Source: Glaciibacter superstes DSM 21135 (GTDB taxonomy: Bacteria; Actinomycetota; Actinomycetes; Actinomycetales; Microbacteriaceae). From it: a stretch of DNA of 64,000 bases. The stretch is from contig NZ_ATWH01000013.1 of NCBI RefSeq assembly GCF_000421145.1, forward strand, positions 40,980 to 104,979. Reading direction: 5' to 3'. This document shows positions 7,360 to 42,337 of this stretch, piece by piece. Within the stretch, counting starts at the first letter, position 1; every line of letters starts with the position of its first letter. Below the pieces are notes generated by a model. The model was not told the origin of the DNA, did not search any database, and worked only from the letters and a program-made list of their open reading frames with translations. A program made the position numbers and the translations under genes.

Positions 7360-7420
7360 TTGCGCCGGGAATCGTCGTTGTAGCGGGGATTTTCGGCGTC
7401 AACGGCGATTCTGAACGCAC
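7360..7420. repeat. intergenic palindromic element, family A copy 1
   Basis: Arms GAATCGTCGTTG (7369-7380) and CAACGGCGATTC (7400-7411) pair with one mismatch around a 19-nt centre. The flanks also fit the family consensus (TGCGCCG left, AACGCAC right). It lies between divergent metY and the solA-like gene. Its centre (TAGCGGGGATTTTCGGCG) is nearly the same as that of copy 2 on the other side of the solA-like gene. Confidence 0.8.
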
Positions 7421-7483
7421 GAGGGCGCCGGCTGGCGGGCCAAACCGGGGAGACGGATGCCGGGGTGCGGCAGGATGGAGCGC

Positions 7484-8671
7484 ATGGCCGAAAGAATCGA
7501 GACACTCGTGATCGGCGGCGGCGCGATGGGATCCGCGACTGCCTGGCAGCTGGCCAGGCGCGGCCGGAGTGTCACACTCCTCGAGCGCTTCGCGCCCGGT
7601 CACCTGAACGGTGCATCCCACGGCGCGTCGCGCAACTTCAACACCACGTACTCCGAACCCAGCTATGTGGCCATGCTCGGCGAGTCGCTCCGGCTGTGGC
7701 GCGAGCTTGAAGCGGAATCGGGCACGCGCCTGCTCGACCAGGTCGGGATCGTCAATCACGGTCCGAACCCGGCGTTCGACGACGTCGCCGGAGCGCTGCG
7801 GAGCGCGGGACTCGGGGCCGAGTTCCTGGCGCCGGGGGCCGCCGGTGAACGCTGGCCTGGCATCCGTTTCGACGGTCGCGTGCTGCACACGCCGGACGCC
7901 GGCCGACTGGGCGCGGATGCCGCGGTCACAGCCCTCCAGGCGGCTGCCACTGCGACGGGCGCCGACGTGCGCCATGCAACCCGCGTGGTGGCGCTCGAGG
8001 TGCTCGGCGACGATCACGTGCGGGTGACGACCGAGACGGGCACGATCGACGCCCAGCGCGTAGTCGTCACGGTAGGTGCGTGGACCACGAAACTGCTCAG
8101 CGGGCTGATTCCGGTGCCGCGTCTTGTCGTCACGCAGGAACAACCGGCGCATTTCGCCCTGCGCGACCAGTCGACGGATGCCGCGGCGCGGGCCGCCGTC
8201 GAATGGCCGGGCTTCAACCACACGCGCGACCCGGCCGACGCGAAGTACGACTATTGGTACTCGCCGATCTACGGCATGTACACACCAGGCGAGGGGGTGA
8301 AGGCCGGCTGGCACGGCGTCGGTCGGGTTACCGATCCCGACGCGCGCAGCTTCATGCCAGAACCGGTGCAGCTGGCCGCGCTCCAACGCTACGTGCGCGA
8401 TTGGCTGCCTGGCGCGGACGCCGACGCGCTCGAACCGGTCAGCTGCACCTACACCACCACCGCCGACGAGGACTTTGTGCTCGACCGCGTCGGACCGGTC
8501 ATCGTCGGCGCGGGCTTCAGCGGCCATGGCTTCAAGTTCACCCCGTCGGTCGGCCGTATCCTGGCCGACCTGGCGACGGATACCGCTCCCGCATCCGGCG
8601 TGGACCTCGCGATGTTCGCGTTGTCGCGCACGCCGAACGGCCACTCAGGCGGCTGGCTCGCTCGTCGCTGA
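7484..8671 (+). CDS. FAD-dependent oxidase, SolA / monomeric sarcosine oxidase family
   Basis: 395 residues. N-terminal dinucleotide-binding motif 'VIGGGAMGSATAW', the 'HGASRNFNTTY' region that contacts FAD, and near the C-terminus 'CTYTTTADEDFVLD' with Cys321 in the place of the cysteine that carries covalent FAD in this family, then 'GFSGHGFKFTPSVG'. The family oxidises N-methyl amino acids such as sarcosine or N-methyltryptophan, releasing formaldehyde and H2O2; the exact substrate cannot be told. ATGs at 7457 and 7475 are also in frame; 7484 fits the family start. The gene is flanked on both sides by near-identical palindromic elements in direct orientation. Confidence 0.88.
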   Translation: MAERIETLVIGGGAMGSATAWQLARRGRSVTLLERFAPGHLNGASHGASRNFNTTYSEPSYVAMLGESLRLWRELEAESGTRLLDQVGIVNHGPNPAFDDVAGALRSAGLGAEFLAPGAAGERWPGIRFDGRVLHTPDAGRLGADAAVTALQAAATATGADVRHATRVVALEVLGDDHVRVTTETGTIDAQRVVVTVGAWTTKLLSGLIPVPRLVVTQEQPAHFALRDQSTDAAARAAVEWPGFNHTRDPADAKYDYWYSPIYGMYTPGEGVKAGWHGVGRVTDPDARSFMPEPVQLAALQRYVRDWLPGADADALEPVSCTYTTTADEDFVLDRVGPVIVGAGFSGHGFKFTPSVGRILADLATDTAPASGVDLAMFALSRTPNGHSGGWLARR

Positions 8672-8726
8672 CCGTCCAGTGCGCAGGACGGAACGTGCGG
8701 AGCAGCGAGGCCCGAGTGTCGCCGGC

Positions 8727-8786
8727 CGCGCCGAGAATCGCCCGTGTAGCGGGGACTTTGGGCGCGAACGACGATTCTCGGCGCAC
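8727..8786. repeat. intergenic palindromic element, family A copy 2
   Basis: Perfect 13-bp arms GCGCCGAGAATCG (8728-8740) and its complement (8772-8784) around a 31-nt centre. The centre TAGCGGGGACTTTGGGCG is a near-copy of that in the element at 7360-7420, in the same orientation. It lies between the convergent solA-like gene and the response regulator. Confidence 0.85.
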
Positions 8787-8886
8787 GCAGCGCCCGATGG
8801 ATACACCACCGTTCGTCATCACGAAGGACGCGCCAGGACTGACCGCTAGGGAGAGCCTCACCGACGAAACGTCTCGCGTTCGCTGA

Positions 8887-9528
8887 TCAGGTCTGCGGTG
8901 GATGGCCGATACCTCGGTCGCGGGCCAGCGCCACCAGGTGAGCGCGCGACGTGGCGTGCAGTTTGGCCATGAGCCCGCTCACATTGTTCTGCACAGTCTT
9001 CGTCGAAAGGAACATCGCCTGTCCGATCGCCCGGTTGTCGGCGCCGGTCGTGATCTTGACCAGGAGTTCGTACTCGCGCTCGGTCAGCCCCTGGCGGCCG
9101 GCAGCCAACGGATGCTGCAGCGTCTCGCGCACTAAGCGGCCGGCCTGTCCGCTGAAGATCGTGTCCCCTTCTGCCGCGCCGTAGATGGCACGCACGATAG
9201 ACCCGTGTCCTGCCCCCTTGAGCACGTAACCGCATGCCCCGCTTCGAAGCGCCCGCGAAAGCGAGAGCTCGTCGTCATGCATCGTCAGGATTAGCGCCGC
9301 GGCATCCGGCCTGCGCGCTAACAGGCGTTCGCAGGTTGCCGCCCCATCGAGCAGCGGCATATCGAGGTCGAGCACCGCGACGTCGAAGTCGATCGCGTCT
9401 GCGACCTCCAGAAGCCGCTCGCCGTTTGCGGCGGTCCCGACGACGGTCACACCGTCCGTCGTGTCGAGCAGCAGCCTCAAACCGTCGAGAAACACCGGGT
9501 GGTCGTCCGCGAGAATAACCCTGATCAT
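8887..9528 (-). CDS. LuxR/NarL-type response regulator (module 1)
   Basis: 213 residues. Receiver domain with acidic pair 'ADDH' at residues 7-10, phospho-acceptor Asp54 in 'AVLDLDMP' and Lys104 in 'YVLKGAG', then a LuxR-type helix-turn-helix in the last 65 residues ('LTEREYELLVKI', 'LSTKTVQNNVSGLMAKL'). It would be phosphorylated by the kinase at 9525-11570, whose stop its ATG overlaps (ATGA), and act as a DNA-binding regulator. The target genes are unknown. The order membrane protein, kinase, regulator is repeated at 30825-34292. Confidence 0.95.
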   Translation of the reverse strand: MIRVILADDHPVFLDGLRLLLDTTDGVTVVGTAANGERLLEVADAIDFDVAVLDLDMPLLDGAATCERLLARRPDAAALILTMHDDELSLSRALRSGACGYVLKGAGHGSIVRAIYGAAEGDTIFSGQAGRLVRETLQHPLAAGRQGLTEREYELLVKITTGADNRAIGQAMFLSTKTVQNNVSGLMAKLHATSRAHLVALARDRGIGHPPQT

Positions 9529-11570
9529 GACTCCTCCTCCGAGACTGCCCGGATGCCAGCCAGTGGGATGTGCGCCACCACCGCCGTGCCGACGCCGCCG
9601 GCTCGCAGTCCCGTCGTGAGGGTACCGCCCAGGTTTTTGGCCCGCTCCCGCATCGAACGCATCCCGACTCCCGGTTGGCTCCCACCGAGTCCGACACCGT
9701 CGTCTTCGACCCGCACGATCAGAGTCGTCTCGTCTGCGTCGATCCGCACCCAGATATTGCGGGCCCAGGAGTGCCTGGCCACGTTCCGCATCGCTTCCCC
9801 GGTCATCCTGAAAACCGACAGTTCTGCGTCTTGATCGAGCACCGGCATCCGTTGGGTGATGTCGGCGTGCAGGCGAAGACCAGGGGTCAGTTTGTTGGCC
9901 AGATCGACGAGAGCGTCCCTGAGCCCCACAGCCTCGAGCGTCGCCGGGCGGAGCTCGTCGATGATCCGGCGGATGTCGTGCACGATCTCCTCCGCGTTCG
10001 ACCCGATGCTCTCGAGCACGGCGTCCAGCCGCCGACCCTCGCTCGATGACACGGCTGCGCCCCTGGATAGGTTCCTGGCGGCCTCCGATTGCAGGACGAT
10101 TCCGGCAAGGCTCGGACCGATGCCGTCGTGAAGATCGCGCTGCAGGCGTGCCCGCTCGTCGTCGCGCACCGAGGCGAGGCGTGCGTAACTCTGCTGCAGA
10201 TCGGACCTCAGGCCCTCGGCTCGCACCGCCAACCCGGCTTGGGCGGCCACCCTCGCGAGAAGTCGTCGATCCTTGGCGCCAAGGCCTTCGCCCGCCGCCC
10301 GCTCGTGCGCGATCAGAGCGCCGCTGTCGATCCCGTTCACCTGGAGCGGGAGGCGCAGGCCCTCTGTGCCGGGTATCCCAGCATCAGCAACCAGCATTCC
10401 GTCGGCATCGAGCAACGCGACGTATGGCAATCGCAGTGACCGCGCGAGTTCCGCGGCCACAGTATTCGCGAGCGAGCCTGAATCGCGGTGCAGCCGCTCC
10501 GACAGCATTTCCACCGCTCTGTCCGGGTCGCCACGCTCACCGTAGAGGAGTAGCTCCAGCAGCCAATGGAAGAAGTTCCGCACCGGGAGGGCGAGTACTC
10601 CAACGAATAGAGCTGCGATCACTGGTGTCGCCGCGTTGTCCAGAAGCAGCACCAGTGCGAGATAGCAGCCCGCGAGCACCGCAGTCGCCGCGGCGTAGAC
10701 CAGCGTCTTGCGCACCGCGCGACCGAGACTCCAGAGACCGTGTTGCAGCACGGCGACCGCGACAACGGCGGGCAGGAAGACGTAAGCGGCCGCCTCGGCG
10801 AGCTGCAGTGCACCGCCGAGACCGGCGAGTGCCGCCGTGACGGCGAGAAGGACGGCGGCAGTGAGGATCCAGCGCAGTTGCTGCCGTTCCAGTTCACCAC
10901 CACGTACCCACCGCCAGAGCAGCGCACCGGCGCACAGCGCGGTGAGCACCGGAATCGCCAGGAAAGCCGGGCCGAGCGCCGCATTCAGAGAGACGGATGC
11001 CGCACTCCAGCCCAGCGAGTTGTGCACGTGACTCAGGGGCTCAGTGCCCAGCGGCCCCGGAAGCAGTGCCGTCACTGCCACGGTCAGCGCGAACCACAGG
11101 ATCGCCCCGATCTCGACGATTCGCCACCACCGATTCGGCAGCCGCCCAGTCGGAAAACGGAGGAGGAGCTCGAAGAGGGCGAACTGGGCGGGAACCCAGC
11201 TCCAGTTCGTGGTCCACAAGATGACGGCCGGCACGTCGGCGCCCTGTCCGACTGCGGCCACGATCGCTCCGATCGATAGCCGAGAGAGCAGGCCGGTCAG
11301 CCCGGCGGCGACCAGCCACCAGCCCATCGGTGCCGCAACGTCCTGCTGCAACAGCACAGCGCCGGTGAGGGCCAGCGCGGTCATTCCGACGACAAACGCG
11401 ACAACCGCCACCCGGCTGAGCACGCTGTGCGTTGCGCCAAGCGGAAGCCCGATCGCGAACCCGATAGCCAACATCGAAACGACCAGTCCCGAAACCAGCG
11501 TCCACACCGGCACGCGGCCGGCGATCTCCCTCAGGAGACCGTCGGCGCGGTAGGCAGCGGCGCCAGTCAT
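9525..11570 (-). CDS. membrane sensor histidine kinase, NarL-partner type (module 1)
   Basis: 681 residues. The first 330 or so form about eight transmembrane segments with no large outside loop, so the signal may be in or at the membrane. A GAF-like region follows ('LLYGERGDPDRAVEML' to 'AAQAGLAVRAE'), then the HisKA_3 box 'RDLHDGIGPSLAG' with His481, and a HATPase domain with 'GEAMRNVARHS' (N box) and 'VEDDGVGLGG' (G1). It overlaps the regulator by ATGA and begins 9 nt after the small membrane protein gene. Signal unknown. Its closest relative in this window is the kinase at 31493-33607, which has the same architecture. Confidence 0.93.
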   Translation of the reverse strand: MTGAAAYRADGLLREIAGRVPVWTLVSGLVVSMLAIGFAIGLPLGATHSVLSRVAVVAFVVGMTALALTGAVLLQQDVAAPMGWWLVAAGLTGLLSRLSIGAIVAAVGQGADVPAVILWTTNWSWVPAQFALFELLLRFPTGRLPNRWWRIVEIGAILWFALTVAVTALLPGPLGTEPLSHVHNSLGWSAASVSLNAALGPAFLAIPVLTALCAGALLWRWVRGGELERQQLRWILTAAVLLAVTAALAGLGGALQLAEAAAYVFLPAVVAVAVLQHGLWSLGRAVRKTLVYAAATAVLAGCYLALVLLLDNAATPVIAALFVGVLALPVRNFFHWLLELLLYGERGDPDRAVEMLSERLHRDSGSLANTVAAELARSLRLPYVALLDADGMLVADAGIPGTEGLRLPLQVNGIDSGALIAHERAAGEGLGAKDRRLLARVAAQAGLAVRAEGLRSDLQQSYARLASVRDDERARLQRDLHDGIGPSLAGIVLQSEAARNLSRGAAVSSSEGRRLDAVLESIGSNAEEIVHDIRRIIDELRPATLEAVGLRDALVDLANKLTPGLRLHADITQRMPVLDQDAELSVFRMTGEAMRNVARHSWARNIWVRIDADETTLIVRVEDDGVGLGGSQPGVGMRSMRERAKNLGGTLTTGLRAGGVGTAVVAHIPLAGIRAVSEEES

Positions 11571-11579
11571 GGCGGAAGT

Positions 11580-12188
11580 CTATGCCAGGGCCGGTTCGGG
11601 ACTCGCCACCGGTATCCGTCGTCTCGCCAGCGCCGCCCAAGCGAGCGCGGCACCCACGAGGATGCTGCCGGCGGGGCCGAAGACCGGGATGACGACGGCC
11701 CCGACGATCAACAGGATCGCAGCCGGAATCGGGAACACCCTGCGGGACCAGCCGTTGATGGCGACGAGGCAGAGCACGGCGATCCAGGCGATCCAGATCG
11801 ACGTCATGACGACTTGGAAGGTGCCGCCGTCCTGGGTCTCCAGTGCAACCGGCGCCACCTCGAGAAGGAATGGCGTGACGACAGCCTGCGTGAAGAGGGT
11901 GCAGGCCTGCAGCGCGGCCACTGCCGCCAGCAGCGGGATTGTCCAGCCGGAGAGCCGTCGTCCAGTGGGCCCGGTCCAGGTGCGCAGCGACGGAGCGAGG
12001 GCGACCAGGGCGATGAGAGCGGCGAGATAGATGTAGTTGAAGGCGACATAACGCCAATCGGCGACACTTTCCACGAAACTTTGGTCGCCGCTGACGAAGC
12101 CGTCGACCATCCAGGGGGTTCCGATAATCAGGCCGTTGGCGAAGAGTACCGCTCCGATCGTCGTGATCGCGCCCGTGCGTGCTTTCAT
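11580..12188 (-). CDS. six-TM integral membrane protein, first gene of signalling module 1
   Basis: 202 residues, mostly hydrophobic, with about six membrane segments and no catalytic motif. ATG is preceded by GAGGAG. It is the first gene of a minus-strand operon with the histidine kinase and response regulator. The C-terminal region 'IVGAVVIPVFGPAG' resembles 'LLWDFLLPAVGPLE' of the protein at 33582-34292, and both have 'NG' followed by 'GTPW' or 'GLPAY' near the N-terminus, so they appear homologous. Role unknown; a membrane signal sensor or modulator of the kinase is an inference from gene order. Confidence 0.75.
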   Translation of the reverse strand: MKARTGAITTIGAVLFANGLIIGTPWMVDGFVSGDQSFVESVADWRYVAFNYIYLAALIALVALAPSLRTWTGPTGRRLSGWTIPLLAAVAALQACTLFTQAVVTPFLLEVAPVALETQDGGTFQVVMTSIWIAWIAVLCLVAINGWSRRVFPIPAAILLIVGAVVIPVFGPAGSILVGAALAWAALARRRIPVASPEPALA

Positions 12189-12223
12189 GCTGTGCTCCTC
12201 AGCGTCCGTTGTCCGACATCATG

Positions 12224-12237
12224 CGGGCGCATGCCCG
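12224..12237. promoter_or_regulatory. small inverted repeat upstream of module 1
   Basis: CGGGC-gcat-GCCCG lies 36 nt before the start of the small membrane protein gene and is flanked by two direct copies of TCCGACA. It could be a regulator site, possibly for autoregulation. Weak evidence. Confidence 0.25.
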
Positions 12238-12328
12238 ATAATCCGACACTATGGACTGTGCGTTCCCGCCGGAAAGAGGCCGAACTCCCGCAATATCGGG
12301 AAGATGTGCCGGGAAGCCGGCTCGCGGC

Positions 12329-12334
12329 TAGGCT
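12329..12334 (+). promoter_or_regulatory. -10 box TAGGCT, leaderless
   Basis: TAGGCT is followed by 6 nt and the ATG at 12341. A small hairpin (GCCGG-gaag-CCGGC, 12308-12321) lies just upstream. Confidence 0.45.
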
Positions 12335-12340
12335 GGCGCG

Positions 12341-12646
12341 ATGATCCTCGAGCACGCGATCCTGCCCGTCATCCCCGGTAGGGAAGTCGCGTTCGAGGAG
12401 GCCTTCGCCGCGGCATCCGTCTTCATCTCCCGCGCAATGGGCTTCATCGACCTGAACCTGTCTCGTTCAGAGGAGACCCCGAACGAGTACCTGTTGCTCG
12501 TGCATTGGGAGAACATCGCGGCGCACGACCCCGGCTTCCGCGGCTCGCCCGATTACCAGCAGTGGAAGGCACTGCTGCACCATTTCTACGACCCGTTCCC
12601 GATCGTGGAGCATTTCAGCACAGTGCGCGCCATTCATCCCGCTTAG
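12341..12646 (+). CDS. ABM-domain (antibiotic biosynthesis monooxygenase-like) protein
   Basis: 101 residues, the usual single-domain length. The layout 'MILEHAILPVIPGREVAFEE' at the N-terminus, 'LNLSRSEETPNEYLLLVHWE' and 'WKALLHHFYDPFPIVEHF' fits the dimeric alpha/beta-barrel ABM fold. Small proteins of this kind include cofactor-free quinol oxygenases and heme-degrading enzymes, but many have no known role. It stands alone, upstream of the guanidinium exporter, and is probably transcribed from its own leaderless promoter. Confidence 0.85.
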   Translation: MILEHAILPVIPGREVAFEEAFAAASVFISRAMGFIDLNLSRSEETPNEYLLLVHWENIAAHDPGFRGSPDYQQWKALLHHFYDPFPIVEHFSTVRAIHPA

Positions 12647-12702
12647 GCGGAACGGACGCCGGATTGAGCGTTACGGCTCAGCCCCTGCACGGCCTCGCAC
12701 AG

Positions 12703-12708: not shown

Positions 12709-12731
12709 AGACGCAGGCCGCCAGACGCGGC

Positions 12732-12773
12732 CCCGGACGAGGGATCAGTACCCGGAACGCGACAAGACTGGCC
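12732..12773 (+). promoter_or_regulatory. guanidine-III (ykkC-III) riboswitch
   Basis: The sequence carries the blocks of the guanidine-III class in order: CCGGACGAGG at 12733-12742, GTACCCGG at 12748-12755, and GACAAGAC at 12761-12768. P1 pairs the CCGG words at 12733-12736 and 12752-12755. P2 of the H-type pseudoknot pairs CAGT (12746-12749) with ACTG (12767-12770) plus a G-U pair. The right strand of P2 ends about 5 nt before the GGGAG ribosome binding site (12776-12780), so ligand binding probably controls translation. The class senses free guanidinium, which fits the exporter that follows. Confidence 0.92.
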
Positions 12774-12785
12774 ACGGGAGTGAAC

Positions 12786-13109
12786 ATGTCCTGGATCATC
12801 CTCATCATCTCCGGCGTCCTGGAAGCCGTCTGGGCGACCGCCCTCGGTAAGTCGGAGGGCTTCACGAAGCTCTGGCCGTCCGTCGTCTTCGGCGTCGCCC
12901 TGATCGTCAGCATGGCCGGGCTCGCCTTCGCCATGCGCGACATCCCGACCGGAACCGCGTATGCGGTGTGGGTCGGCATCGGCGCGTCCCTCACCGTGGT
13001 CTACGCCATGATCTTCGGCGGAGAAGCCGCGTCGCTGATCAAAGTGCTGCTGATCCTCGGTCTCGTCGGCTGCATCGTCGGACTCAAGCTGGTCGACGGC
13101 GGTCACTGA
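12786..13109 (+). CDS. gdx: guanidinium exporter, small multidrug resistance family (Gdx/SugE)
   Basis: 107 residues with four transmembrane helices. The conserved Glu of the SMR family is in 'GVLEAVWATALGKSEGF', and 'IGASLTVVYAMIFGGEAAS' and 'VGLKLVDG' are typical of the SugE branch rather than EmrE. The family works as an antiparallel dimer that exchanges protons for guanidinium. ATG 12786 is chosen because GGGAG lies 5 nt upstream; a GTG at 12780 is in frame but would be part of the binding site. The guanidine-III riboswitch directly upstream supports the guanidinium assignment. Confidence 0.95.
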   Translation: MSWIILIISGVLEAVWATALGKSEGFTKLWPSVVFGVALIVSMAGLAFAMRDIPTGTAYAVWVGIGASLTVVYAMIFGGEAASLIKVLLILGLVGCIVGLKLVDGGH

Positions 13110-13133
13110 CCGCGCGCCGCTGGGAATCGCCCT

Positions 13134-13193
13134 TCGCGCCGTGAATCGCCGGAGCATCGGCGACAGTCGGTGCAAACGGCGATTGTTGTGCAC
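13134..13193. repeat. intergenic palindromic element, family A copy 3
   Basis: Left part GCGCCGTGAATCGCC (13136-13150) and right part AAACGGCGATTGTTGTGCAC (13174-13193) fit the family consensus. Only the inner 7 bp (AATCGCC / GGCGATT) pair perfectly. A second GGGAATCGCCC lies just upstream at 13122. It is between the exporter gene and the desaturase terminator. Confidence 0.65.
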
Positions 13194-13234
13194 GCACGAC
13201 GGTCACGCACGCACAAGACGACGCACGCACAAGA

Positions 13235-13270: not shown

Positions 13271-13284
13271 CAGTGCTGTTCAGA

Positions 13285-14388
13285 TCAGGTATGCACCCTG
13301 AACCGCTGTGTCATGGGGCAGTCGAACGGGTCCCTGGCTGCCAGGCCGACCTTGTTCAGATAGCGGACCACGATGCCGTACGACTGCATCAGCGTCGTCT
13401 CGGTGTAGAGGATGTTGTGGCTCTGGCAGTACTCCTTGGTGATCTCCTGGGCCTTCCGCAGGTTGGGGCGAGCCATGTTCGGGAACAGGTGGTGCTCGAC
13501 CTGGTAGTTCAGGCCACCCATGAAGGCGTCCATCACCGTGCCACCGCGAATGTTGCGCGACGTCAGAACCTGGCGGCGAAGGAAGTCGACCTTGCTCTCG
13601 TGCGGCAACTGCGGCATGCCCTTGTGGTTCGGAGCGAACGAGGCACCCATGTACACACCGAACACGGCCAGCTGCACACCGATGAAGGCGAACGCCATTC
13701 CGAGCGGCAGGAAGTAGAAGATCACGGCGACGTAGAGCAGGATGCGGGTGGTGAGCATGGTGATCTCGAGCCAGCGCTTGTCGACTTTCTTACGCCCGAA
13801 CACGGTGCGGAAGCCGTGGGCGTGCAGGTTGAGCCCCTCGAGCATCAGCATCGGGAAGAACAGGTAGCCCTGCCTGCGCGTCATGAACGACGTGAGCCAG
13901 CCGACCTTTGACGCGTCTTCTTCATTGAAACGAATGAAGTCGGGCTCGATGTCTGGGTCCTTACCCACGACGTTCGGCTGGGCGTGGTGTCTGCTGTGCT
14001 TGTTCATCCACCAGGAATAGCTGATCCCCACGAACATGTTGGCCAGGATGCGTCCAGCACGATCGTTGGCCGGCCCGGATTCGAAGACCTGACGGTGGGA
14101 TGCCTCGTGGGCGAGGAAAGCGAACTGGGTGAGGATGATGCCGAGCGCGCCAGCGATCAGCAGCTGGTACCAAGTGTCGCCCAGCAGTACGAAGCCGGCA
14201 ACAGCGCCGCCCGTGGCCAAGACCAGGATCGAGAAGACGATCCAGTAGAAACCGGTGCGCCGTCGCAGCAGTCCCAGGTTACGCACCGTGTGCAGCAGTG
14301 ATGAGTATTCGGTGGTGGGGTTCTTCGAATCACCGCCGGGGCGGGTTTTCAGAATGCGGACCGTGGGTGCGGCGGTAACTTCCGACAT
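13285..14388 (-). CDS. membrane fatty acid desaturase
   Basis: 367 residues. All three histidine boxes of acyl-lipid/acyl-CoA desaturases are present: 'HEASHRQ' near residue 112, 'HSRHHAQPN' near 152 and 'QVEHHLFP' near 300, with four hydrophobic segments in two pairs. It would insert a double bond in membrane lipid acyl chains with a di-iron centre, needing an electron donor that is not encoded nearby. Start ATG has AGAGG 5 nt upstream. The upstream region holds a possible operator (14477-14493) and an AT-rich palindrome, so temperature or fatty acid control is plausible but not shown. Confidence 0.93.
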   Translation of the reverse strand: MSEVTAAPTVRILKTRPGGDSKNPTTEYSSLLHTVRNLGLLRRRTGFYWIVFSILVLATGGAVAGFVLLGDTWYQLLIAGALGIILTQFAFLAHEASHRQVFESGPANDRAGRILANMFVGISYSWWMNKHSRHHAQPNVVGKDPDIEPDFIRFNEEDASKVGWLTSFMTRRQGYLFFPMLMLEGLNLHAHGFRTVFGRKKVDKRWLEITMLTTRILLYVAVIFYFLPLGMAFAFIGVQLAVFGVYMGASFAPNHKGMPQLPHESKVDFLRRQVLTSRNIRGGTVMDAFMGGLNYQVEHHLFPNMARPNLRKAQEITKEYCQSHNILYTETTLMQSYGIVVRYLNKVGLAARDPFDCPMTQRFRVHT

Positions 14389-34440: not shown

Positions 34441-34803
34441 TCAGGTTCGGACGCCTCGGGGAGCTAACTGCGGTGCTGACGGGATGATCCCCAGCGGCAC
34501 GACGAACGTCTCGCGCTCGTTGCGGTCGATGGAATAGCACTGCCAGCCGAATCCACCGGCACCGGCGAACTCGAAGCGTGCGTCGAAGTCGACGGCATCA
34601 GGATAGTAGTGCGCGGTCTGGACCTGGCACGATGCGATGGCCGTGCGGGATGCGACGTTCATGGTGGTCAGGATTCCGGGAACCACGAGGGCGACGAGGC
34701 CGACGGCAACGATGATCCGCATTGCTGTCTTAACGCGCCTGCTGCGCAGTGGTCGCTCGTCTGGTGGCTCGTAGCCGGAGAGTTCTGGGTGCTGTTCGCT
34801 CAT
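34441..34803 (-). CDS. small single-TM membrane protein, unknown function
   Basis: 120 residues. Hydrophilic N-terminus rich in Pro and Arg ('YEPPDERPLRSRRVKTAMR'), one transmembrane segment at about residues 29-46, and an outside domain with two cysteines ('ASCQVQTAHYYPDAV' and 'GWQCYSIDRNE'). ATG 34803 has AAGAGAGC upstream. Tail 'VPLGIIPSAPQLAPRG'. No family recognised. Confidence 0.65.
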   Translation of the reverse strand: MSEQHPELSGYEPPDERPLRSRRVKTAMRIIVAVGLVALVVPGILTTMNVASRTAIASCQVQTAHYYPDAVDFDARFEFAGAGGFGWQCYSIDRNERETFVVPLGIIPSAPQLAPRGVRT

Positions 34804-34871
34804 GATTGCTCTCTTCAAGTATCGCCTGCCTCGCGTGCTCGCGCGCACTCCAGCCCGCTCCCGAATCGCCG

Positions 34872-34934
34872 ATTGCGCCCAGACGACCCGTTGCTCCGAC
34901 GATTCTGGGCGCGAATGGCGAATCTGGGCGCGAG
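34872..34934. repeat. intergenic palindromic element, family A copy 4
   Basis: Left part TTGCGCCCAGACGACCCGTT (34873-34892). The right arm word TCTGGGCGC occurs twice (34904-34912 and 34923-34931) and each can pair with GCGCCCAGA (34875-34883). It lies between the divergent genes at 34803 and 35062. Confidence 0.65.
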
Positions 34935-35061: not shown

Positions 35062-36288
35062 ATGGCCACACTGCAACGCCACCTCGGCACCTCGCGCGCG
35101 ATCGTCATCGGCCTGGCCGCGATGATCGGCGCCGGGGTCTTCTACGTTTGGGCGCCCGCGGCCGCCGCGGCCGGAACCGGCCTGCTGATCGGGCTGGTCA
35201 TCGCCGGGGTGATCGCGTCGTTGAACGCACTCAGTTCAGCGCAACTGGCCATGGCCTATCCGGTTTCCGGTGGCACATACGCGTACGGCCGTGCGCTGCT
35301 CGGGCCATGGTGGGGCTTCAGCGCCGGTTGGCTGTTCATGGCCGGAAAGACCGCATCGGCGGCGGCGATCGCCCTGATCGCAGGTGGCTATCTCTGGCCG
35401 GATGCTGCCCGCCCGGTCGCCGTCGCTGTGGTGGTGATCCTCGGCGTCATCAACATGACCGGAATCCGCAGCACGGCAGGAGTGAGCACGGCCATCGTCT
35501 TGACGGTGCTCTGCGGCCTGCTCGTCGTGCTGGCAGCGACGGTGTTCGGCGGCGCGCTGCAGGGTGCCAGCCTCGACGCGGAGACGATGACGGATGCCGG
35601 CTGGTACGGCATCCTTCAATCGGCGGGCCTGCTCTTCTTCTGCTTTGCCGGGTACGCACGAATGGCGACGCTCGGCGAAGAGGTCAAGGACCCGCGGCGC
35701 ACCCTTCCACGCGCGATCATCATCGCGCTCGGCATCACGTTGCTTCTCTACGCGGTGATCGGGTGGCTGTGCGTGACGATCCTCGGGCCGGTCGCCCTGG
35801 CTGAATCGGTGTCTCCGGTCGCAGACCTCCTCGGTGGCGGCGAACCATGGTCCGGTATGGCACGCATTGTCGCCGCGATCGCCTGCCTCGGCTCGCTCCT
35901 GGGCATTCTCGCCGGCCTCAGCCGCACCGGTCTGGCCATGGCCAGGGAGCGCGACCTCCCTGGCCCGCTCAGCGGCATTTCGGGACGCACGCACGCGCCG
36001 GTCGTGGCAGAGACGGTGATCGCCCTGGCCGCGATCTGTGCGGTGCTGTTCGTCGATCCGTCGCACCTCATCGGATTCTCCGCCTGCTCCGTGCTGGTCT
36101 ACTACGCGATTGCCCATCTGTCTGCGCTCCGGCAGCAGGGAACCGACCGCTGGCTTCCGCGAGTGGTGCAGTACGCAGGCGTTGCCGGATGCCTGCTGCT
36201 CGCGTTCACGCTCCCGTGGCAGGGCGTCGTGGCGTCCATGGTGTGGCTCGCTGTCGGCCTGGCTGCGCGCGGCATCCACAGTGGGTGA
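35062..36288 (+). CDS. APC family amino acid permease
   Basis: 408 residues, about twelve membrane segments. The helix-1 motif 'AMIGAGVFYVWAPAAAAAG' is seen at residues 20-38 and 'YPVSGGTYAYGRALLGPWWG' in helix 3, with 'AGYARMATLGEEVKDPRRTLPRAI' region after helix 6 (quoted in part as 'GEEVKDPRRTLP'). It is a proton-coupled amino acid or amine carrier; substrate not known. It is a stand-alone gene with its own leaderless promoter, convergent with gnd 8 bp downstream. Confidence 0.92.
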   Translation: MATLQRHLGTSRAIVIGLAAMIGAGVFYVWAPAAAAAGTGLLIGLVIAGVIASLNALSSAQLAMAYPVSGGTYAYGRALLGPWWGFSAGWLFMAGKTASAAAIALIAGGYLWPDAARPVAVAVVVILGVINMTGIRSTAGVSTAIVLTVLCGLLVVLAATVFGGALQGASLDAETMTDAGWYGILQSAGLLFFCFAGYARMATLGEEVKDPRRTLPRAIIIALGITLLLYAVIGWLCVTILGPVALAESVSPVADLLGGGEPWSGMARIVAAIACLGSLLGILAGLSRTGLAMARERDLPGPLSGISGRTHAPVVAETVIALAAICAVLFVDPSHLIGFSACSVLVYYAIAHLSALRQQGTDRWLPRVVQYAGVAGCLLLAFTLPWQGVVASMVWLAVGLAARGIHSG

Positions 36289-36296: not shown

Positions 36297-37754
36297 TCAG
36301 TGCGTGGAAGGCTTCATCGTGATCTCCGTGCGGTCGCCAGACCACAGTGTGTGGAACACGCCGGGCTCGTCGACGCGCTTATACGTGTGCGCGCCGAAGA
36401 AGTCGCGCTGGCCCTGCACCAGCGCGGCAGGAAGCCGCTCGCTGGCGAGTGAGTCGAAGTAGCTCAGTGCCGACGAGAATCCCGGCACCGGAATGCCAGA
36501 CAGCGCGGCAGTCGAAACGATCCGGCGCCAGGCCGACTCGCCTTCTGCGACGGCCTTGGCGAAGTACGGGTCGACGAGCAGGCTCGGGATCGACGCGTCG
36601 TTCGCGTAGGCGTCGACGATGCGGTTGAGGAACTGGGCGCGGATGATGCAGCCGCCGCGCCAGATTGTGGCAATGGCGCCCTTGTCGATGTCCCAGCCGT
36701 ACTTCGCTGCGCCGGCGATAATGGCGTCGAAGCCCTGCGCGTATGCGACGACCTTCGACGCGTAGAGGGCGGCCCGAACGTCGTCCTGGAAGGTGTTGCC
36801 GACGACGGCGATCTCCGGGCGCGCTGTGATCGTGGCGCGCACCGGTCCGCGCTGCTCTGGGTGGCTGGAGACCGCGCGGGCGAAGACTGCTTCAGCGATG
36901 CCGCCGACGGGCACGCCAAGGTCGAGGGCATTCTGCACGGTCCAGACGCCGGTACCCTTCGAACCGGCTTCGTCGAGCACGATGTCCACGAACGGCTTGC
37001 CGGTCTTGGCATCGACCTGGCGGAGAACCTCAGCGGTGATTTCGATCAGGTAGCTTTCGAGTTCGCCTGTGTTCCATTCGGCGAAGATGTCGGCGATGGC
37101 GGCGGGGGAGTGGCCGCCAACGTGGCGAAGGAGGTCGTAGCCCTCAGCGATGAGCTGCATGTCGGCGTACTCGATGCCGTTGTGGATCATCTTGACGAAG
37201 TGACCCGCGCCGTCTGTGCCGATGTGCGTGACGCAGGGCACGCCGTCGACGACGGCCGCGATCGATTCGAGAATCGGGCCGAGTGTCTTGTAGGCCTCCA
37301 CCGATCCGCCGGGCATGATCGATGGGCCCTTGAGGGCGCCCTCCTCGCCGCCGGAGATGCCCGCTCCGACGAAGTTCACGCCGGTGGCGCTGACCGCCTT
37401 CTCACGACGGATGGTGTCGTGGAAGTCCGCGTTTCCGCCGTCGACGATGATGTCGCCAGGTTCGAAGAGCCCGGTGAGCTGGTCGATGACGGCATCCGTG
37501 CCCTTGCCTGCCTGCACCATGATGATGGCCGTGCGAGGTTTCGCCAGCGAGGCCACGAAATCCTCGATGGACTCTGAGGCGACGAAGCCGGCATCCGCGT
37601 GTTCACTCATGAGCAGGCGTGTGCGCTCAGGGGAGCGGTTGTACACGGCGACCGTGTTCCCCTCGCGGCTGGCGAGGTTGCGGGCCAGGTTCGAACCCAT
37701 CACCGCCAGCCCGACGACGCCGATGTTTGCAGAGCCCGAAGCGGTGTCAGACAC
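36297..37754 (-). CDS. gnd: 6-phosphogluconate dehydrogenase (decarboxylating)
   Basis: 485 residues, the long form. NADP-binding 'VVGLAVMGSNLARNLASR', the substrate site 'GAGISGGEEGALKGPSIMPGG' (quoted in part as 'GISGGEEGA'), 'KMIHNGIEYADMQLIAEGY' and 'WRGGCIIRAQFLN'. It converts 6-phosphogluconate to ribulose-5-phosphate with NADPH. GTG start has AGGAGG upstream. It is 103 bp downstream of kdgK on the same strand and fits with gntK at 56549 in a gluconate branch. Confidence 0.96.
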   Translation of the reverse strand: MSDTASGSANIGVVGLAVMGSNLARNLASREGNTVAVYNRSPERTRLLMSEHADAGFVASESIEDFVASLAKPRTAIIMVQAGKGTDAVIDQLTGLFEPGDIIVDGGNADFHDTIRREKAVSATGVNFVGAGISGGEEGALKGPSIMPGGSVEAYKTLGPILESIAAVVDGVPCVTHIGTDGAGHFVKMIHNGIEYADMQLIAEGYDLLRHVGGHSPAAIADIFAEWNTGELESYLIEITAEVLRQVDAKTGKPFVDIVLDEAGSKGTGVWTVQNALDLGVPVGGIAEAVFARAVSSHPEQRGPVRATITARPEIAVVGNTFQDDVRAALYASKVVAYAQGFDAIIAGAAKYGWDIDKGAIATIWRGGCIIRAQFLNRIVDAYANDASIPSLLVDPYFAKAVAEGESAWRRIVSTAALSGIPVPGFSSALSYFDSLASERLPAALVQGQRDFFGAHTYKRVDEPGVFHTLWSGDRTEITMKPSTH

Positions 37755-37857
37755 GTTTCCTCCTGATAGTGGTTTTCCGAATCAAGCGTAGTGTGCCTGC
37801 CGAAATCGTTGTGCAAGCGCCTCGTCACAGAGCGCAACCGCTCAGCGGTTCACTTGC

Positions 37858-38808
37858 TCAGCGGTTCACCTGCTCCGTCGCGGTGAGCGCCGCCAGTTCG
37901 TCACGTCGCGGCAGGCCTTCCCAGTCGCCGATCGTCAGGCAGGCGTACGCGCCAACAGTGACCGCCGTGGTCAGCCTGGTCGGCACATCGGCACCCGCGA
38001 GGTACTCAGCCAGGTAGCCGGCCACGAAGGCGTCGCCAGCGCCGACGGTGTCGATCGCGTCCACCCGCACGGCGTCACGCAGGTAGTCGACGCCGGCAAC
38101 GGATGCCGCGGCGCCGTTCGAGCCGAGCTTGACGATGGCTTCTCCCGCGCCAAGTTCGACCAGGCGATGAGCCAGCTCTAACGGGTCGTCGGCCTCGCCG
38201 ACCGCGATGGCGGCCTCATCGTCACCGGCGAACACGATGTCGGCAAGCGGGATGATCGTGCGATAGAAGTCGCGGGCCTCGGCGCGCGACCAGAGCTTGC
38301 CGCGGTAGTTCAGGTCGAACGACACTGTCACCCCGGCTTCGCGGGCCACACGAACGGCTTCGAGGATGACCGCGGCCAGCTCAGGGGAGAGGGCGGGAGA
38401 GATGCCGGTGACGTGCAGGAGTGTGGCGCCTCTGACCAGGCCGAAGTCGACATCCGTCACGCCGAGCCGGGAACCGGCGTTGCCTGCCCGGTAGTACCAG
38501 ACGCGGGTCTCTGCACTGGTGCGCCGTTCTTTGACCATGAGCGCCGTCGCCGCGTCGGCGTCGCGGATGCCGACCACCCGCACGCCCTCTGCGCCGATCT
38601 CCCGCAGCACCAGGTCGCCAAGGGAATCCGCTCCGACCTTGCCGATCCAGGTCACATCGACGCCGAGGCGGCGGAGTCCGATGGCGACGTTGCTCTCGGC
38701 TCCGCCGATGCTCAGGTTCAGCGTGGCGCTGTGCTGCAGCAGGCCGTATCCGGGAGTCGCCATCAGCGCCATGGTCTCGCCGATGGTGACGACTCCTGCG
38801 CCGCTCAT
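37858..38808 (-). CDS. kdgK: 2-keto-3-deoxygluconate kinase (PfkB family)
   Basis: 316 residues. 'GETMALMATPGYG' at the N-terminus, 'GGAESNVAIGLRRLG' and the C-terminal ATP-binding and catalytic 'DTVGAGDAFVAGYLAEY' are PfkB signatures. The neighbours (eda, uxaA, manD, uxaC) point to KDG as substrate. It makes KDPG, which the adjacent aldolase splits. ATG overlaps the eda stop (ATGA). Confidence 0.92.
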   Translation of the reverse strand: MSGAGVVTIGETMALMATPGYGLLQHSATLNLSIGGAESNVAIGLRRLGVDVTWIGKVGADSLGDLVLREIGAEGVRVVGIRDADAATALMVKERRTSAETRVWYYRAGNAGSRLGVTDVDFGLVRGATLLHVTGISPALSPELAAVILEAVRVAREAGVTVSFDLNYRGKLWSRAEARDFYRTIIPLADIVFAGDDEAAIAVGEADDPLELAHRLVELGAGEAIVKLGSNGAAASVAGVDYLRDAVRVDAIDTVGAGDAFVAGYLAEYLAGADVPTRLTTAVTVGAYACLTIGDWEGLPRRDELAALTATEQVNR

Positions 38809-39482
38809 CGTGTGGCCGCACCGTCTGCGCTGCGGGCTTCTGCGGCGATCGACACGGCGCGTCTGGCGCGTTCGGCGAGCGCCTCGAGTGATCCACCCTT
38901 CAGCGCGTCCCCCACGAGCGGGCCGCCGAGGCTGACCGCCAGCGCGCCAGCTTTCAGCCAGGCGGGGATGTCGCCGAGCGCAATGCCGCCAGACGGTACG
39001 AACTCGATATCGGGGAACGGGCCGCGCAGGTGCGAACCGTACTGCGGCCCGACGGTCTCGGCGGGGAACACCTTGACGGCGCTCGCTCCTGCCGCCCAGG
39101 CGGAATAGAGTTCGGTCGGCGTCAGCCCGCCGGGGTAGACCGGCACGCCGGCTGACACCGCGAGTGCGATGACGTCGATGTTCACGATCGGTGTGACCAG
39201 ATAGTGCGCCCCGTTGTCGATAGCCCGTGTCGCTTGTGCGGCGTTCGTGATGGTGCCGATGCCGATCTGGGCGCCGGTGCCGACGCGCTCAAGCAGCGCA
39301 GGAAGGTGTTCCAGCGTGCCAGGGGTGCTGAGCGTCAGTTCGATCGAACGCACACCGTTTGCGACCAGCACGTCGACGACGGCGTCGTAATCGCCCGGGT
39401 CACTGGCGCGTAGCACCGCGATCACCGGGTTCTCGCGCAGCAGGGTGGACGGTGCGGTTCTGATTGGCGTGGGTGTGGTCAC
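38805..39482 (-). CDS. eda: KDPG aldolase
   Basis: 225 residues. 'NPVIAVLRASDPGDYDAVV', 'IGIGTITNAAQATRAIDNGA' (quoted as 'IGIGTITNA'), and the Schiff-base lysine in 'GASAVKVFPAETVG' fit KDPG/KHG aldolases. It splits 2-keto-3-deoxy-6-phosphogluconate to pyruvate and glyceraldehyde-3-phosphate. GTG 39482 is chosen because GGAG lies 7 nt upstream; the frame is open further. It follows a LacI gene and precedes kdgK in one operon. Confidence 0.94.
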   Translation of the reverse strand: MTTPTPIRTAPSTLLRENPVIAVLRASDPGDYDAVVDVLVANGVRSIELTLSTPGTLEHLPALLERVGTGAQIGIGTITNAAQATRAIDNGAHYLVTPIVNIDVIALAVSAGVPVYPGGLTPTELYSAWAAGASAVKVFPAETVGPQYGSHLRGPFPDIEFVPSGGIALGDIPAWLKAGALAVSLGGPLVGDALKGGSLEALAERARRAVSIAAEARSADGAATR

Positions 39483-39544
39483 GGTGACTCCTGGCGTGTG
39501 TGCGGTTGGGTGTGTGGGCGGTTGCGTTGATGGGAGACGGGTGA

Positions 39545-40576
39545 TCAGGTGACTACTGAAGTGCCGGTGTGAACGGATGTCGCGGCACGACCCCAGCGCT
39601 GTGCCGTCGATTCGCGCACGATGAGCCGGCTCGGTACAGTTCCAGTTCGCTGGTGCAGTGGGTCGAGGATCGCGGCAGCTGCCAGGGCCCCGAGGGTGCG
39701 GGACGAACTGTCGACCGTGGTCAGCGACGGCCAGGCGAGGCCGTTCGGCAATGAGTCGTCGCATCCGATGACGCTGATCCGTTCGGGAACCGCGATGCCG
39801 GTGTCGCGAAGTGCAGACAGCAAGCCGAGTGCGACCTGGTCGTTGAACGCGATGACGGCGGTCACCTCGTCGGTGTCGACACCGGCGAGCGACTCCCGGC
39901 CGCCGCTGAAGTCCGGTTGCTCCGTGCGGCTGATTATCAGTGACATCCCGAGTTCGGCGCAGACGCGGGTCAGGCTCTCTCGTTTCTGGCGACCTGACCA
40001 GGAGTGCAGAGGTCCATCGACATAGGCGATCTGCGAATGACCGAGCGCCCAGAGGTGCCGTGCCGCCTCCGTGAACCCGGGGTCGATGTCGAGCGCGATC
40101 TGGCTCAGACGATCCGGGCAGTCGGTGCCTGGCTCGAGCATGCGGTTCGCCAGAACGACGGGAAGCCGATCGGCGGCCATGGCGATGTCGGCATCCTGCA
40201 GCCTGCTGGAGGCCAGGATGAGGGCGTCAACCTGGCCGGTCATGCGTCGGATGAGGCTGCGTTCGAGTTCTGGGTTCTCGTGGGAGTCGCCAACAAGGAT
40301 GCCGATATCGCGGGCGCCGAGGACGGTCTCAAGTTCGGCGAGGAAGGAGGTGTAGAACGGGTTGGTGACATCGGGGAGGATCACGCCGACATTGCCAGTG
40401 GAGCCTGTGGCCAGACTGCGTCCGAGGCGGCTCGGAGTGTAGTCGAGCTCTTCTGCAACCCTGCACACCCGTTCCTTCGTAGATGCAACAACCGCAGCCG
40501 ACCCGCTGAGTGCCCGTGAAGCCGTGGCGACGGACACGCCGGCCGCAGTCGCCACCTGCCGTATGGTCGTCGCCAT
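39545..40576 (-). CDS. LacI family transcriptional regulator
   Basis: 343 residues. Helix-turn-helix 'VATAAGVSVATASRAL' at the N-terminus, hinge 'LDYTPSRLGRSLATG', and a periplasmic-binding-like ligand domain ('VGVILPDVTNPFY' to 'RISVIGCDDSLP'). Preceded by GGAAGG. It is the first gene of the lacI-eda-kdgK run and divergent from uxaA, with an AACCGGTT palindrome in between as a likely operator, so it probably represses the uronate genes until a pathway sugar acid binds. Confidence 0.93.
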   Translation of the reverse strand: MATTIRQVATAAGVSVATASRALSGSAAVVASTKERVCRVAEELDYTPSRLGRSLATGSTGNVGVILPDVTNPFYTSFLAELETVLGARDIGILVGDSHENPELERSLIRRMTGQVDALILASSRLQDADIAMAADRLPVVLANRMLEPGTDCPDRLSQIALDIDPGFTEAARHLWALGHSQIAYVDGPLHSWSGRQKRESLTRVCAELGMSLIISRTEQPDFSGGRESLAGVDTDEVTAVIAFNDQVALGLLSALRDTGIAVPERISVIGCDDSLPNGLAWPSLTTVDSSSRTLGALAAAAILDPLHQRTGTVPSRLIVRESTAQRWGRAATSVHTGTSVVT

Positions 40577-40621
40577 CTTGACCTTCCGACTCGAAAGAAG
40601 AATAATGGGAGGAATGAATGA

Positions 40622-40646
40622 AACCGGTTACATTGCTACTGTAACC
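40622..40646. promoter_or_regulatory. likely LacI-family operators between lacI and uxaA
   Basis: The 8-bp perfect palindrome AACCGGTT (40622-40629, centre CG) overlaps a second inverted repeat GGTTACA-ttgctac-TGTAACC (40626-40646, 7-bp arms). The region is between the divergent lacI and uxaA starts. Confidence 0.65.
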
Positions 40647-40669
40647 CACCAGTGAAGGTTGCGCCACCC

Positions 40670-42220
40670 ATGACAGTCCCCACCAGATTCGCCCTCCGCG
40701 AGGTCGCGCTTCACCTCAGCGAAACAGATGAGGTGGCGGTGGCGACCAGGGCGCTGGAGGCCGGCATCGTCATCGAACTGGGCGACGGCGGTGAGGTAAC
40801 ACTCACCGCCGACATCCCGCGAAGCCACAAGTTTGCCCTCAGACACGTGGCCGCCGGCGACCAGGTACACAAATACGGCCAGTCGATCGGGCGAGCGACG
40901 ACGAACATCGCCCCCGGCGACCATGTGCACACCCAGAACCTCGGCATGGATGACGCCGACCGAGTGCATGAGTTCGGCACGGCCCGCACGGCGCTCGCCG
41001 AAACGATGGGGGAGATGCCGACATTCCTCGGCTACCCCAGGGCCGACGGCCGCTTCGGCACGCGTAACTACATCGGTATTCTCACCTCGGTGAACTGCTC
41101 GGCCACAGCCGCCAATCTCATTGCCGACGCCTTCCGGGGGTTCGCGCTCGACGACTATGAGAACGTCGACGGCGTCATGGCACTCACCCACAACAGCGGA
41201 TGCGGGCTGGTGCCCACCAGCGAGGGCGGCCAGGTACTTCTGCGCACTCTGCGCGGCTATGCCAGCCACCCCAATTTCGGCGGGATGCTGGTGGTCGGCC
41301 TGGGCTGTGAGATGGTGCCGGTCGAGACACTGGTCGAAGGGTACGCGCTGCCGGCGGACACCATCGTGTCGACCATGAACATCCAGGGCGAGGGCGGAGT
41401 GCGCGCCACCGTCAAAGAGGGCATCGCGCGCATCCGAGCCATGCTTCCAGAGCTCAACAAGCGCACGCGGGTGCCCGCCCCGGTCTCAGAACTGGTGCTC
41501 GGCTTGAACTGCGGCGGATCGGACGGATACTCGGGGGTCACGGCGAACCCGGCGCTCGGAGTCGCCTCCGACCGGTTGGTCGCCTGGGGAGGAACGTCGA
41601 TTCTCGCAGAGACTCCCGAAGTTTTCGGTGCTGAGCATCTCTTGACCAGCCGGGCCGTCTCCGAGGCCGTCGGCCAGCGACTTCTCGACCGGATCGAGTG
41701 GTGGCAGGGTTATGCAAAGCAGGGCGGTGGAAGCCTCGACAACAATCCATCGCCCGGTAACAAGGCGGGTGGGCTGACAACGATCCTCGAGAAGTCGCTC
41801 GGAGCCGTGGCGAAAGCGGGACGCGCCGACCTGTCGGCGGTCTATGAATACGCGGAACCGGTCACAGAGCGCGGCCTCGTCTTCATGGACACCCCTGGAT
41901 ATGACCCGGTATCCGTCACCGGCATCATCGCCGGCGGCGCGACCGTCGTCTGCTTCACCACCGGCCGTGGTTCGGTCTTCGGGGCAAAGCCGACGCCGTC
42001 GATCAAACTGGCCACGAACACCGAGATGTTCGAGAAGATGGCCGACGACATGGACCTGAACGCCGGGCGCATCGTCGACGGCACGGCCACGATCGCCGAG
42101 GTCGGGAGCGAGATCTTCGACCTCATCATCCGCGTCGCCTCCGGCGAGCAGACCGTCAGCGAAGAACTCGGCGTCGGCCAGGAGGAGTTCATCCCCTGGC
42201 AGTTCGGCACCGTCACCTGA
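40670..42220 (+). CDS. uxaA: altronate dehydratase (UxaA/GarD family)
   Basis: 516 residues from ATG 40670 (a GTG at 40652 is also in frame). The N-terminal SAF domain has 'RSHKFALRHVAAGDQVHKYG' and is followed by the catalytic part with 'FGTRNYIGILTSVNCSATAA', 'THNSGCGLVPTSEGG', 'LVVGLGCEMVPVETL' and 'LNCGGSDGYSGVTANPALG'. It dehydrates D-altronate to KDG in galacturonate breakdown; galactarate dehydratases share the fold, so the substrate is set mainly by context (uxaC, kdgK, eda nearby). Confidence 0.9.
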   Translation: MTVPTRFALREVALHLSETDEVAVATRALEAGIVIELGDGGEVTLTADIPRSHKFALRHVAAGDQVHKYGQSIGRATTNIAPGDHVHTQNLGMDDADRVHEFGTARTALAETMGEMPTFLGYPRADGRFGTRNYIGILTSVNCSATAANLIADAFRGFALDDYENVDGVMALTHNSGCGLVPTSEGGQVLLRTLRGYASHPNFGGMLVVGLGCEMVPVETLVEGYALPADTIVSTMNIQGEGGVRATVKEGIARIRAMLPELNKRTRVPAPVSELVLGLNCGGSDGYSGVTANPALGVASDRLVAWGGTSILAETPEVFGAEHLLTSRAVSEAVGQRLLDRIEWWQGYAKQGGGSLDNNPSPGNKAGGLTTILEKSLGAVAKAGRADLSAVYEYAEPVTERGLVFMDTPGYDPVSVTGIIAGGATVVCFTTGRGSVFGAKPTPSIKLATNTEMFEKMADDMDLNAGRIVDGTATIAEVGSEIFDLIIRVASGEQTVSEELGVGQEEFIPWQFGTVT

Positions 42221-42275
42221 CGAGTGCGAGCGGCGGGCCGTGTCATCCACGCTCGGCGCGTCTTGCGCGTCGCCG

Positions 42276-42337
42276 TTTGCGCCGACAATCGCCGTTCGGC
42301 CGGCGATTGTCGGCACGAACGGCGATTCTCGGCGGGA
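42276..42337. repeat. intergenic palindromic element, family A copy 5
   Basis: GCCGACAATCGCCG (42281-42294) and its perfect 14-bp complement (42301-42314) enclose TTCGGC. A further right-arm copy AACGGCGATTCTCGGCG (42318-42334) follows and can compete for the left arm. It separates the convergent uxaA and manD genes and could end transcription in both directions. Confidence 0.85.

What the first reader, a model, noticed from the sequence alone, without database searches (positions are those of the whole stretch)
7360..42337. A five-copy family of intergenic palindromes (family A)
Elements at 7360-7420, 8727-8786, 13134-13193, 34872-34934 and 42276-42337 share a left word close to GCGCCGNGAATCGCC and a right word close to AACGRCGATTNTNGGCGC. 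All five are intergenic, next to convergent or divergent gene ends, and the arms pair with each other. The conserved arms with variable centres do not look like ordinary terminators, and no transposase is near. They could be non-autonomous mobile repeats (REP/MITE-like), protein-binding sites for chromosome structure, or a regulatory RNA motif.
Basis: partly seen in the sequence, partly recalled or inferred. Interest (0 to 1): 0.7.

Follow-up and report, generated by a model that had tools for sequence, protein, structure and literature searches.

The report
Dispersed four-part DNA landing sites
The five repeats are real and belong to a set of about 56 alike-built, 75-letter DNA sites scattered between the genes of one bacterium, which look like docking sites for a protein not yet found rather than RNA hairpins or ordinary stop signals.

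Summary
The five copies belong to a genome-wide family of 56 found (genus Cryobacterium, Microbacteriaceae). Fifty-five of 56 are not inside predicted genes; 28 lie between convergent genes. Arm bases do not covary within a family (56 A copies; B in two genomes) and arm-swapped A elements fold as well, so a stem is not what is conserved. A second family in the window (B, 5284-5357) and further classes in other species and genera have the same architecture with other words; between classes both arms change together. One intergenic gap holds class A, B or C in 7 of 50 congeners and nothing in 43. At sites where B is well kept in one species, a close relative often has a decayed relic. I read these as sites for an unidentified oligomeric DNA-binding protein, placed like REP/BIME repeats at gene 3' ends. 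REP membership fails on tested features (no fixed tag, no Y1_Tnp match, no covarying stem). A trans-mobilised repeat is the main rival. Neither protein nor function is shown.

The parts
7345..7418 (+). family A element 1 (words L1 L2 | R1 R2), between divergent genes (homocysteine synthase-like 5973-7268 - and amino oxidase-like 7484-8671 +)
8711..8784 (+). family A element 2, between convergent genes (oxidase-like + and response regulator-like 8887-9528 -)
13117..13190 (-). family A element 3, between convergent genes (SMR/SugE-like exporter 12786-13109 + and desaturase-like 13285-14388 -)
34858..34931 (+). family A element 4, between divergent predicted genes (34441-34722 - and 35062-36288 +)
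42262..42335 (+). family A element 5, between convergent genes (40670-42220 + and 42380-43612 -)
5284..5357 (-). family B element: same 19/23/19 architecture with another word (GGGCACTCTCGACCGGAA...), between convergent ORFs 4453-5289 + and 5365-5976 -

Best explanation
Each element is a double-stranded DNA site for an oligomeric sequence-specific protein: four protein units (a dimer of dimers, each meeting a 19-bp word through two cores about 10 bp apart) assemble on four words with two-fold symmetry. Shown: the four-word architecture, fixed spacing, intergenic and convergent bias, conserved cores without arm covariation, class-specific words. Inferred: that a protein binds, that it is an oligomer, and that selection keeps the sites. 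Most likely role (inferred, the weakest step): an architectural or insulator-like complex at the 3' junctions of genes, in the manner of BIMEs, which bind gyrase and IHF (PMC2817692, passage), limiting read-through or torsional stress between convergent genes. Related paralogous proteins would read the classes A, B, C and D.
For: 56 full-length copies and a gap in scores below them. In 56 copies the TCGCC/GGCGA cores are at 82-100% per column and the 5-bp middles at 52-84% (column counts); conservation stops at the element ends. No covariation of arms in A (n=56: 0.663 vs 0.667 and 0.692 vs 0.709 expected), in B of the own genome (n=18, z 0.29) or of G008 (n=31, z 0.77); both arms change together between classes (115 pooled elements, z 12.9). 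Context: 27 of 49 element gaps convergent vs 30 of 196 control gaps of 15 bp or more (p 4e-8), also above an expectation weighted by the number of 3' ends (27 of 43, p 2e-4); repeated for B in two genomes (23 of 44 vs 11 of 89 control gaps). Neighbour genes are functionally mixed (99 proteins, 179 Pfam families, none in more than 3), so not a regulon. At 11 of 25 G008 B sites a trace above background (8 of 25 by a stricter cut) lies at the orthologous place in G044, so these sites predate the split, yet in G008 they score like the others (75.4 vs 77.7 bits).
Against: No binding protein was found. REPs, suggested to be mobile, sit in the same kind of gaps (PMC3733652, section 15), so placement does not prove function. 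One orthologous site shows a clean presence/absence (G008 filled, G044 empty), and neighbours within 15 kb resemble each other more than distant copies (p 0.003); both suggest copying or loss as a unit. The G008/G044 comparison starts from sites picked for high scores in G008. Family B elements fold slightly better than arm-swapped ones (z -1.94).
Confidence: 0.45

Rival explanations
1. Non-autonomous mobile repeats (MITE- or REP-like): the four words are binding sites of a transposase or recombinase acting in trans on double-stranded DNA; copies sit where insertion is tolerated, at gene 3' ends.
For: Patchy distribution (12 of 40 genomes for A, own genome and one weak match in another family included; 16 of 40 for B); one gap with an element in 7 of 50 congeners; clean absence of the whole element there in a close relative; clustering (18 neighbour gaps under 15 kb vs 8.8 expected, p 2e-4) and greater likeness of neighbours, up to 0.91; REP-like placement; poor state of family B in G044.
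Against: Apart from 4 partial matches and weak ones near noise, the half-arm matches in the own genome belong to full dyads, so no arm pair bounds a gene (150 candidates scored). No Y1_Tnp in the own genome. Copies average 67% identity, best pair 89%. G008 copies with a trace in G044 are not decayed. No target-site duplication at the one clean empty site.
Confidence: 0.3
2. RNA hairpins: bidirectional terminators or a regulatory RNA motif at transcript ends.
For: Two-fold symmetry; 42 of 56 begin 0-75 bp after a stop codon; G+C-rich; B folds slightly better than arm-swapped (z -1.94).
Against: No covariation; arm-swapped A elements fold as well (z 0.95); 0 of 56 have TTTT beside either end; 7 of 56 lie between divergent genes; no Rfam match at the window copies at the gathering threshold.
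Confidence: 0.08
3. Operator sites of a classical regulator that controls the neighbouring genes.
For: Dyad symmetry and phased cores.
Against: Only 7 of 56 lie between divergent genes; in 15 of 19 tandem cases the element is nearer the upstream stop than the downstream start (distances, test); mixed neighbours.
Confidence: 0.07

Closest known systems
REP/BIME repeats (GTAG and CGTC families; PMC3733652: abstract, section 15 and passages seen; PMC2817692: passages seen)
   Same: Dispersed, intergenic, next to gene 3' ends, mainly convergent and unidirectional gaps, species-specific families, several types per genome
   Different: About 75 bp with four words instead of 20-40 bp stem-loops; no GTAG or CGTC tag at a fixed place; no PF01797 match in the own genome; arms do not covary. 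The word 'actinobacteri' does not occur in the held text of either paper
MITEs (definition recalled)
   Same: Short, inverted-repeat symmetry, patchy
   Different: No autonomous partner with the same ends found in the own genome, no target duplication at the one clean empty site, copies divergent
BldC-type cooperative binding to direct repeats (PMC5859096: passages seen)
   Same: Protein units of 9 bp bind direct repeats side by side on one DNA
   Different: BldC repeats have an AATT core, vary in number and were studied at promoters; here the words are GC-rich, four in number and two-fold symmetric
Noc/parS/matS-type chromosome sites (recalled, no call)
   Same: Many specific sites spread over a chromosome
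   Different: Those are short single palindromes with known proteins

Membership tests
REP/BIME | 20-40 bp palindromic unit with a GTAG or CGTC tag at one end | tested here: not met
   Element is about 75 bp with four words; GTAG near an end in 2 of 56; CGTC in 29 of 56 but at no fixed place (commonest position 7 times); no chance baseline was computed
REP/BIME | RAYT (Y1 tyrosine transposase) in the genome | tested here: not met
   PF01797: 0 matches in the own genome, while 5 of 14 control genomes match. Y1-type proteins outside this model and the congeners were not tested
REP/BIME | Stem kept by paired changes | tested here: not met
   the folding of B (z -1.94) is a weak exception
REP/BIME | Intergenic, 3' of genes, convergent or unidirectional gaps | tested here: met
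MITE | Autonomous element with the same ends in the genome | tested here: not met
   Half-arm model R3 shows no isolated inverted arms around a gene in the own genome; 150 candidates scored
MITE | Target-site duplication | tested here: inconclusive
   One clean filled/empty pair, none seen
Intrinsic terminator | G+C stem followed by a T run | tested here: not met
   0 of 56 with TTTT beside either end
Architectural protein site (NAP or insulator) | A known protein bound at the sites | not testable with these tools
   Needs pull-down, ChIP or footprinting

The most novel reading that the evidence does not exclude
A chromosome-organising or gene-junction insulating system spread over Microbacteriaceae: paralogous proteins assemble as tetramers on four-word sites, preferably between convergent genes, and the site alphabet is rewritten as a set in each lineage (in the core GG-NN-A the NN reads CG, GC/TC, GG or AA), so that the same gene junction carries class A, B or C in different species.
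Probability: 0.25. Interest if true: 0.85.

Novelty: new variant of a known kind. Interest (0 to 1): 0.6.

Why it matters
Dispersed intergenic palindromes in bacteria are usually filed as REP-type stem-loops. Here is a family with REP-like placement whose conserved part is a four-unit duplex site and not a stem, with about 80 bits of information where about 16 would suffice to mark 56 places. If the protein is found, it would give a case of dozens of dispersed sites changing specificity together, and a handle on what protein complexes do at convergent gene junctions in high-GC Gram-positive bacteria.

Tried and rejected
RNA structure: rejected on covariation and arm-swap tests. RAYT: no PF01797 match in the own genome. 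Autonomous partner with A arms: not found in the own genome. Cognate gene between two elements: such genes are ordinary (oxidase-like, thiolase) or have no NCBIfam match (L062:3598-4122, L097:3659-4135, L185:2542-3522, the last between two B sites in the own genome, with a similar ORF between two B sites in G008); not pursued. Mobile DNA collections: viral contigs by exact A and B patterns, plasmids with one A and one B copy and phages with one B copy gave no match; an A copy was not tried against the phage collection. Chromosome position: in genome G005 34 A+B sites are uneven (11 vs 23 per half of contig 1, one empty gap of 927 kb, p 0.009), but I could not place the origin, so nothing is said about ori or ter. 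Exact-pattern hits in Amycolatopsis and a Microcella MAG are not full elements. Paper searches showed no description of these repeats: (listings only); in PMC7381226, a Cryobacterium genome paper, the passages on palindromes and repeats speak of CRISPR.

Rows dropped or cut: one search leaves out 1 of the 26 G044 matches (L276 straddles two query pieces; one search pairs it with the wrong G008 entry). One search shows 24 of 26 sites (2 without anchor). Of 57 congeners with the dehydrogenase gene I examined 50. In one search, 1 of 48 B sites had no context and 3 fell inside predicted genes; the 44 others are counted. The partial element at L066 scored 24.2 bits with the final matrix, just under the cut of 25.

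Full report
Observation. The five copies exist as described and are far above chance (8 matches vs 0.28 expected). The genome (4.80 Mb, 38 contigs; the window is contig 13, 40980-104979) has 96 word matches with at most one mismatch against 8 for the reversed control. A template with four words fits all five window copies: SASAATCGCCGTTTGCGCCGAGAATCGCCG-KTGNAN-CGGCGATTSTSGGCGCAAANGGCGATTSTSGGCGC. The GG/CC cores lie 10, 9 and 10 bp apart in each arm and 9 bp across the centre (columns). A model of 27 copies finds 56 elements at 45.8 bits or more, each matched over positions 1-79, then 30.9, 25.9, 23.6 bits and noise (150 candidates scored, the 27 match by construction).

Place. Of 56, 28 lie between convergent, 19 between tandem and 7 between divergent predicted genes, 1 has no gene on its left in the stretch held and 1 lies in the 3' end of a predicted ORF; two others overlap a gene end by 25-28 bp (gene calls by my own coding model). 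Forty-two of 56 begin 0-75 bp after a stop codon and 7 have no adjacent 3' end. By gaps, 27 of 49 element gaps are convergent against 30 of 196 control gaps of 15 bp or more (p 4e-8). Family B repeats this: 9 of 16 in the own genome and 14 of 28 in G008, against 2 of 24 and 9 of 65 control gaps. The strand of the asymmetric centre agrees with gene direction in 9 of 19 tandem cases (read), so it shows no preference. Neighbour proteins share no theme.

What is conserved. In 56 copies, 24 of 79 columns are at least 90% conserved; total information is 79.6 bits while 16.4 would suffice for 56 places. Conservation stops at the element ends. The 5-bp middles of the words vary most (52-84% per column). 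If a stem were kept, the variable bases of the arms would change together; they do not (the arm comparisons lie between z -1.6 and 0, the direct-repeat comparisons up to 1.8; covariation term -0.06; A z -2.2, that is slightly fewer pairs than shuffled). The same holds for B in the own genome (n=18, z 0.29) and in G008 (n=31, z 0.77). Arm-swapped A elements fold as well as real ones (z 0.95); real B elements fold slightly better (z -1.94). Columns are nearly independent: the spread of pairwise identities is reached by 12 of 300 column shuffles and the top pair (0.89) by 1 of 300.

Other classes. A self-similarity scan for the 19/23/19 architecture, blind to the word, found four elements of a second family in the stretches at hand, one in the window at 5284-5357 (weaker hits of that scan are not distinguishable from shuffled sequence). 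Its model gives matches in 16 of 40 genomes: 42 in the own genome, 91 in G008, 78 in G012 (both strands of an element count, 118 candidates scored per genome). Other words turn up in other species: GGGGACTCTCGGCA in G013 (here called C), GGNAACARTTGTCC in G007, G022, G011 and G002 (D). In the family search 8 of 299 genomes, 5 of 85 genera (own genus included), had full-length matches to the A model; 15 candidates per genome were scored with strict filters, so these are lower bounds. Four elements read from G149, of another genus, use GGAAACACTCGGCGC-like words. When classes are pooled the arms covary strongly (115 elements, z 12.9): the word changes as a set.

Names. An exact-pattern scan of named genomes gave 10 stretches, 8 of them in Cryobacterium (C. 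tagatosivorans, C. breve, C. sinapicolor, C. psychrotolerans), each holding a full element; the Amycolatopsis and Microcella hits did not. Two contig lengths of G006, a congener of the window's genome, equal those of C. tagatosivorans; so the genus is Cryobacterium.

History of sites. The gap between the E1 beta and E2 genes of a branched-chain-type dehydrogenase operon holds an element in 7 of 50 congeners examined (gap 127-202 bp): class A in G000 and G001, B in G008, G012, G064 and G059, C in G013. In the other 43 the gap is 43-91 bp and no score exceeds -37 bits. G013 also has a C element at the own genome's A site L086, and G005 a B element at the A site of L099. G044, close to G008 (flanks 87-96% identical), lacks the element in the operon gap without a visible duplication or scar. 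For 30 G008 B sites, 26 flank matches were found in G044. Scored with a matrix from the own genome's B copies, 2 of 26 G044 places reach 50 bits and 3 lie between 25 and 50, while the G008 sites range from 51 to 93. At 11 of 25 usable sites a trace above the background maximum remains in G044 (8 of 25 above 10 bits, mean 35 there vs 78 in G008); in G008 the 11 score like the rest (75.4 vs 77.7). Genome-wide the B model gives 91 matches in G008 and 26 in G044, running from 57 down to 22 bits. This is why I favour upkeep of individual sites, though the sites were chosen for high score in G008 and I have not seen a score gap in G008 such as one search shows for A.

Against this reading. Copies within 15 kb are more alike than others (0.72 vs 0.69, p 0.003), the four best pairs being 0.81-0.91, and sites cluster, so some copying happens. 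REP repeats, which several groups take for mobile elements, sit in the same kind of gaps (PMC3733652). No protein was found: no Y1_Tnp, no autonomous partner with A arms, nothing on the plasmid, phage and viral records searched. In G005 the A scores run down gradually from 67 to 32 bits, which could be decay or another consensus.

Verdict. A genuine family of four-word dyad sites, not described in the papers that my searches could see. That the conserved object is duplex DNA read by a protein is well supported (about 0.7 in my estimate); that its job lies at gene junctions is a guess (about 0.35); a trans-mobilised repeat remains possible (0.3).

Noticed in passing
window 12713-13109: Guanidine-III riboswitch (Rfam RF01763) directly upstream of an SMR/SugE-like exporter gene, whose 3' end carries a family A element.
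   Followed up: partly
window 59675-59712 and 59762-59799: Imperfect inverted repeat with TTCGACGGAGAT/ATCTCCGTCGAA; similar words (AATTCGACGGAGATTT) appear beside sites in congener G044 (L276, L288, L297), possibly another dispersed repeat.
   Followed up: no
window 1-52: Four head-to-tail copies of a 13-bp unit CTCAGCCTGACCC at the window's start.
   Followed up: no
window 4377-4441: 12-bp tandem repeat near ACGAGAACAACA at the end of an ORF (3413-4456 +), Asn/Glu-rich if translated.
   Followed up: no
L092:5345-5420: Long, nearly perfect palindrome CGTGAGAAAAGCACCTTCCCAGCGCTGGGAAGGTGCTTTTCTCACG in the own genome, unlike families A and B.
   Followed up: no
L185:2542-3522 and L200:2595-3263: A gene without an NCBIfam match lies between two family B elements in the own genome; a similar ORF lies between two B elements in G008.
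   Followed up: partly
G173 contig 2, 237755-239618 (L300, L310, L314): Three A-like elements within 1.9 kb in another Microbacteriaceae genus.
   Followed up: partly
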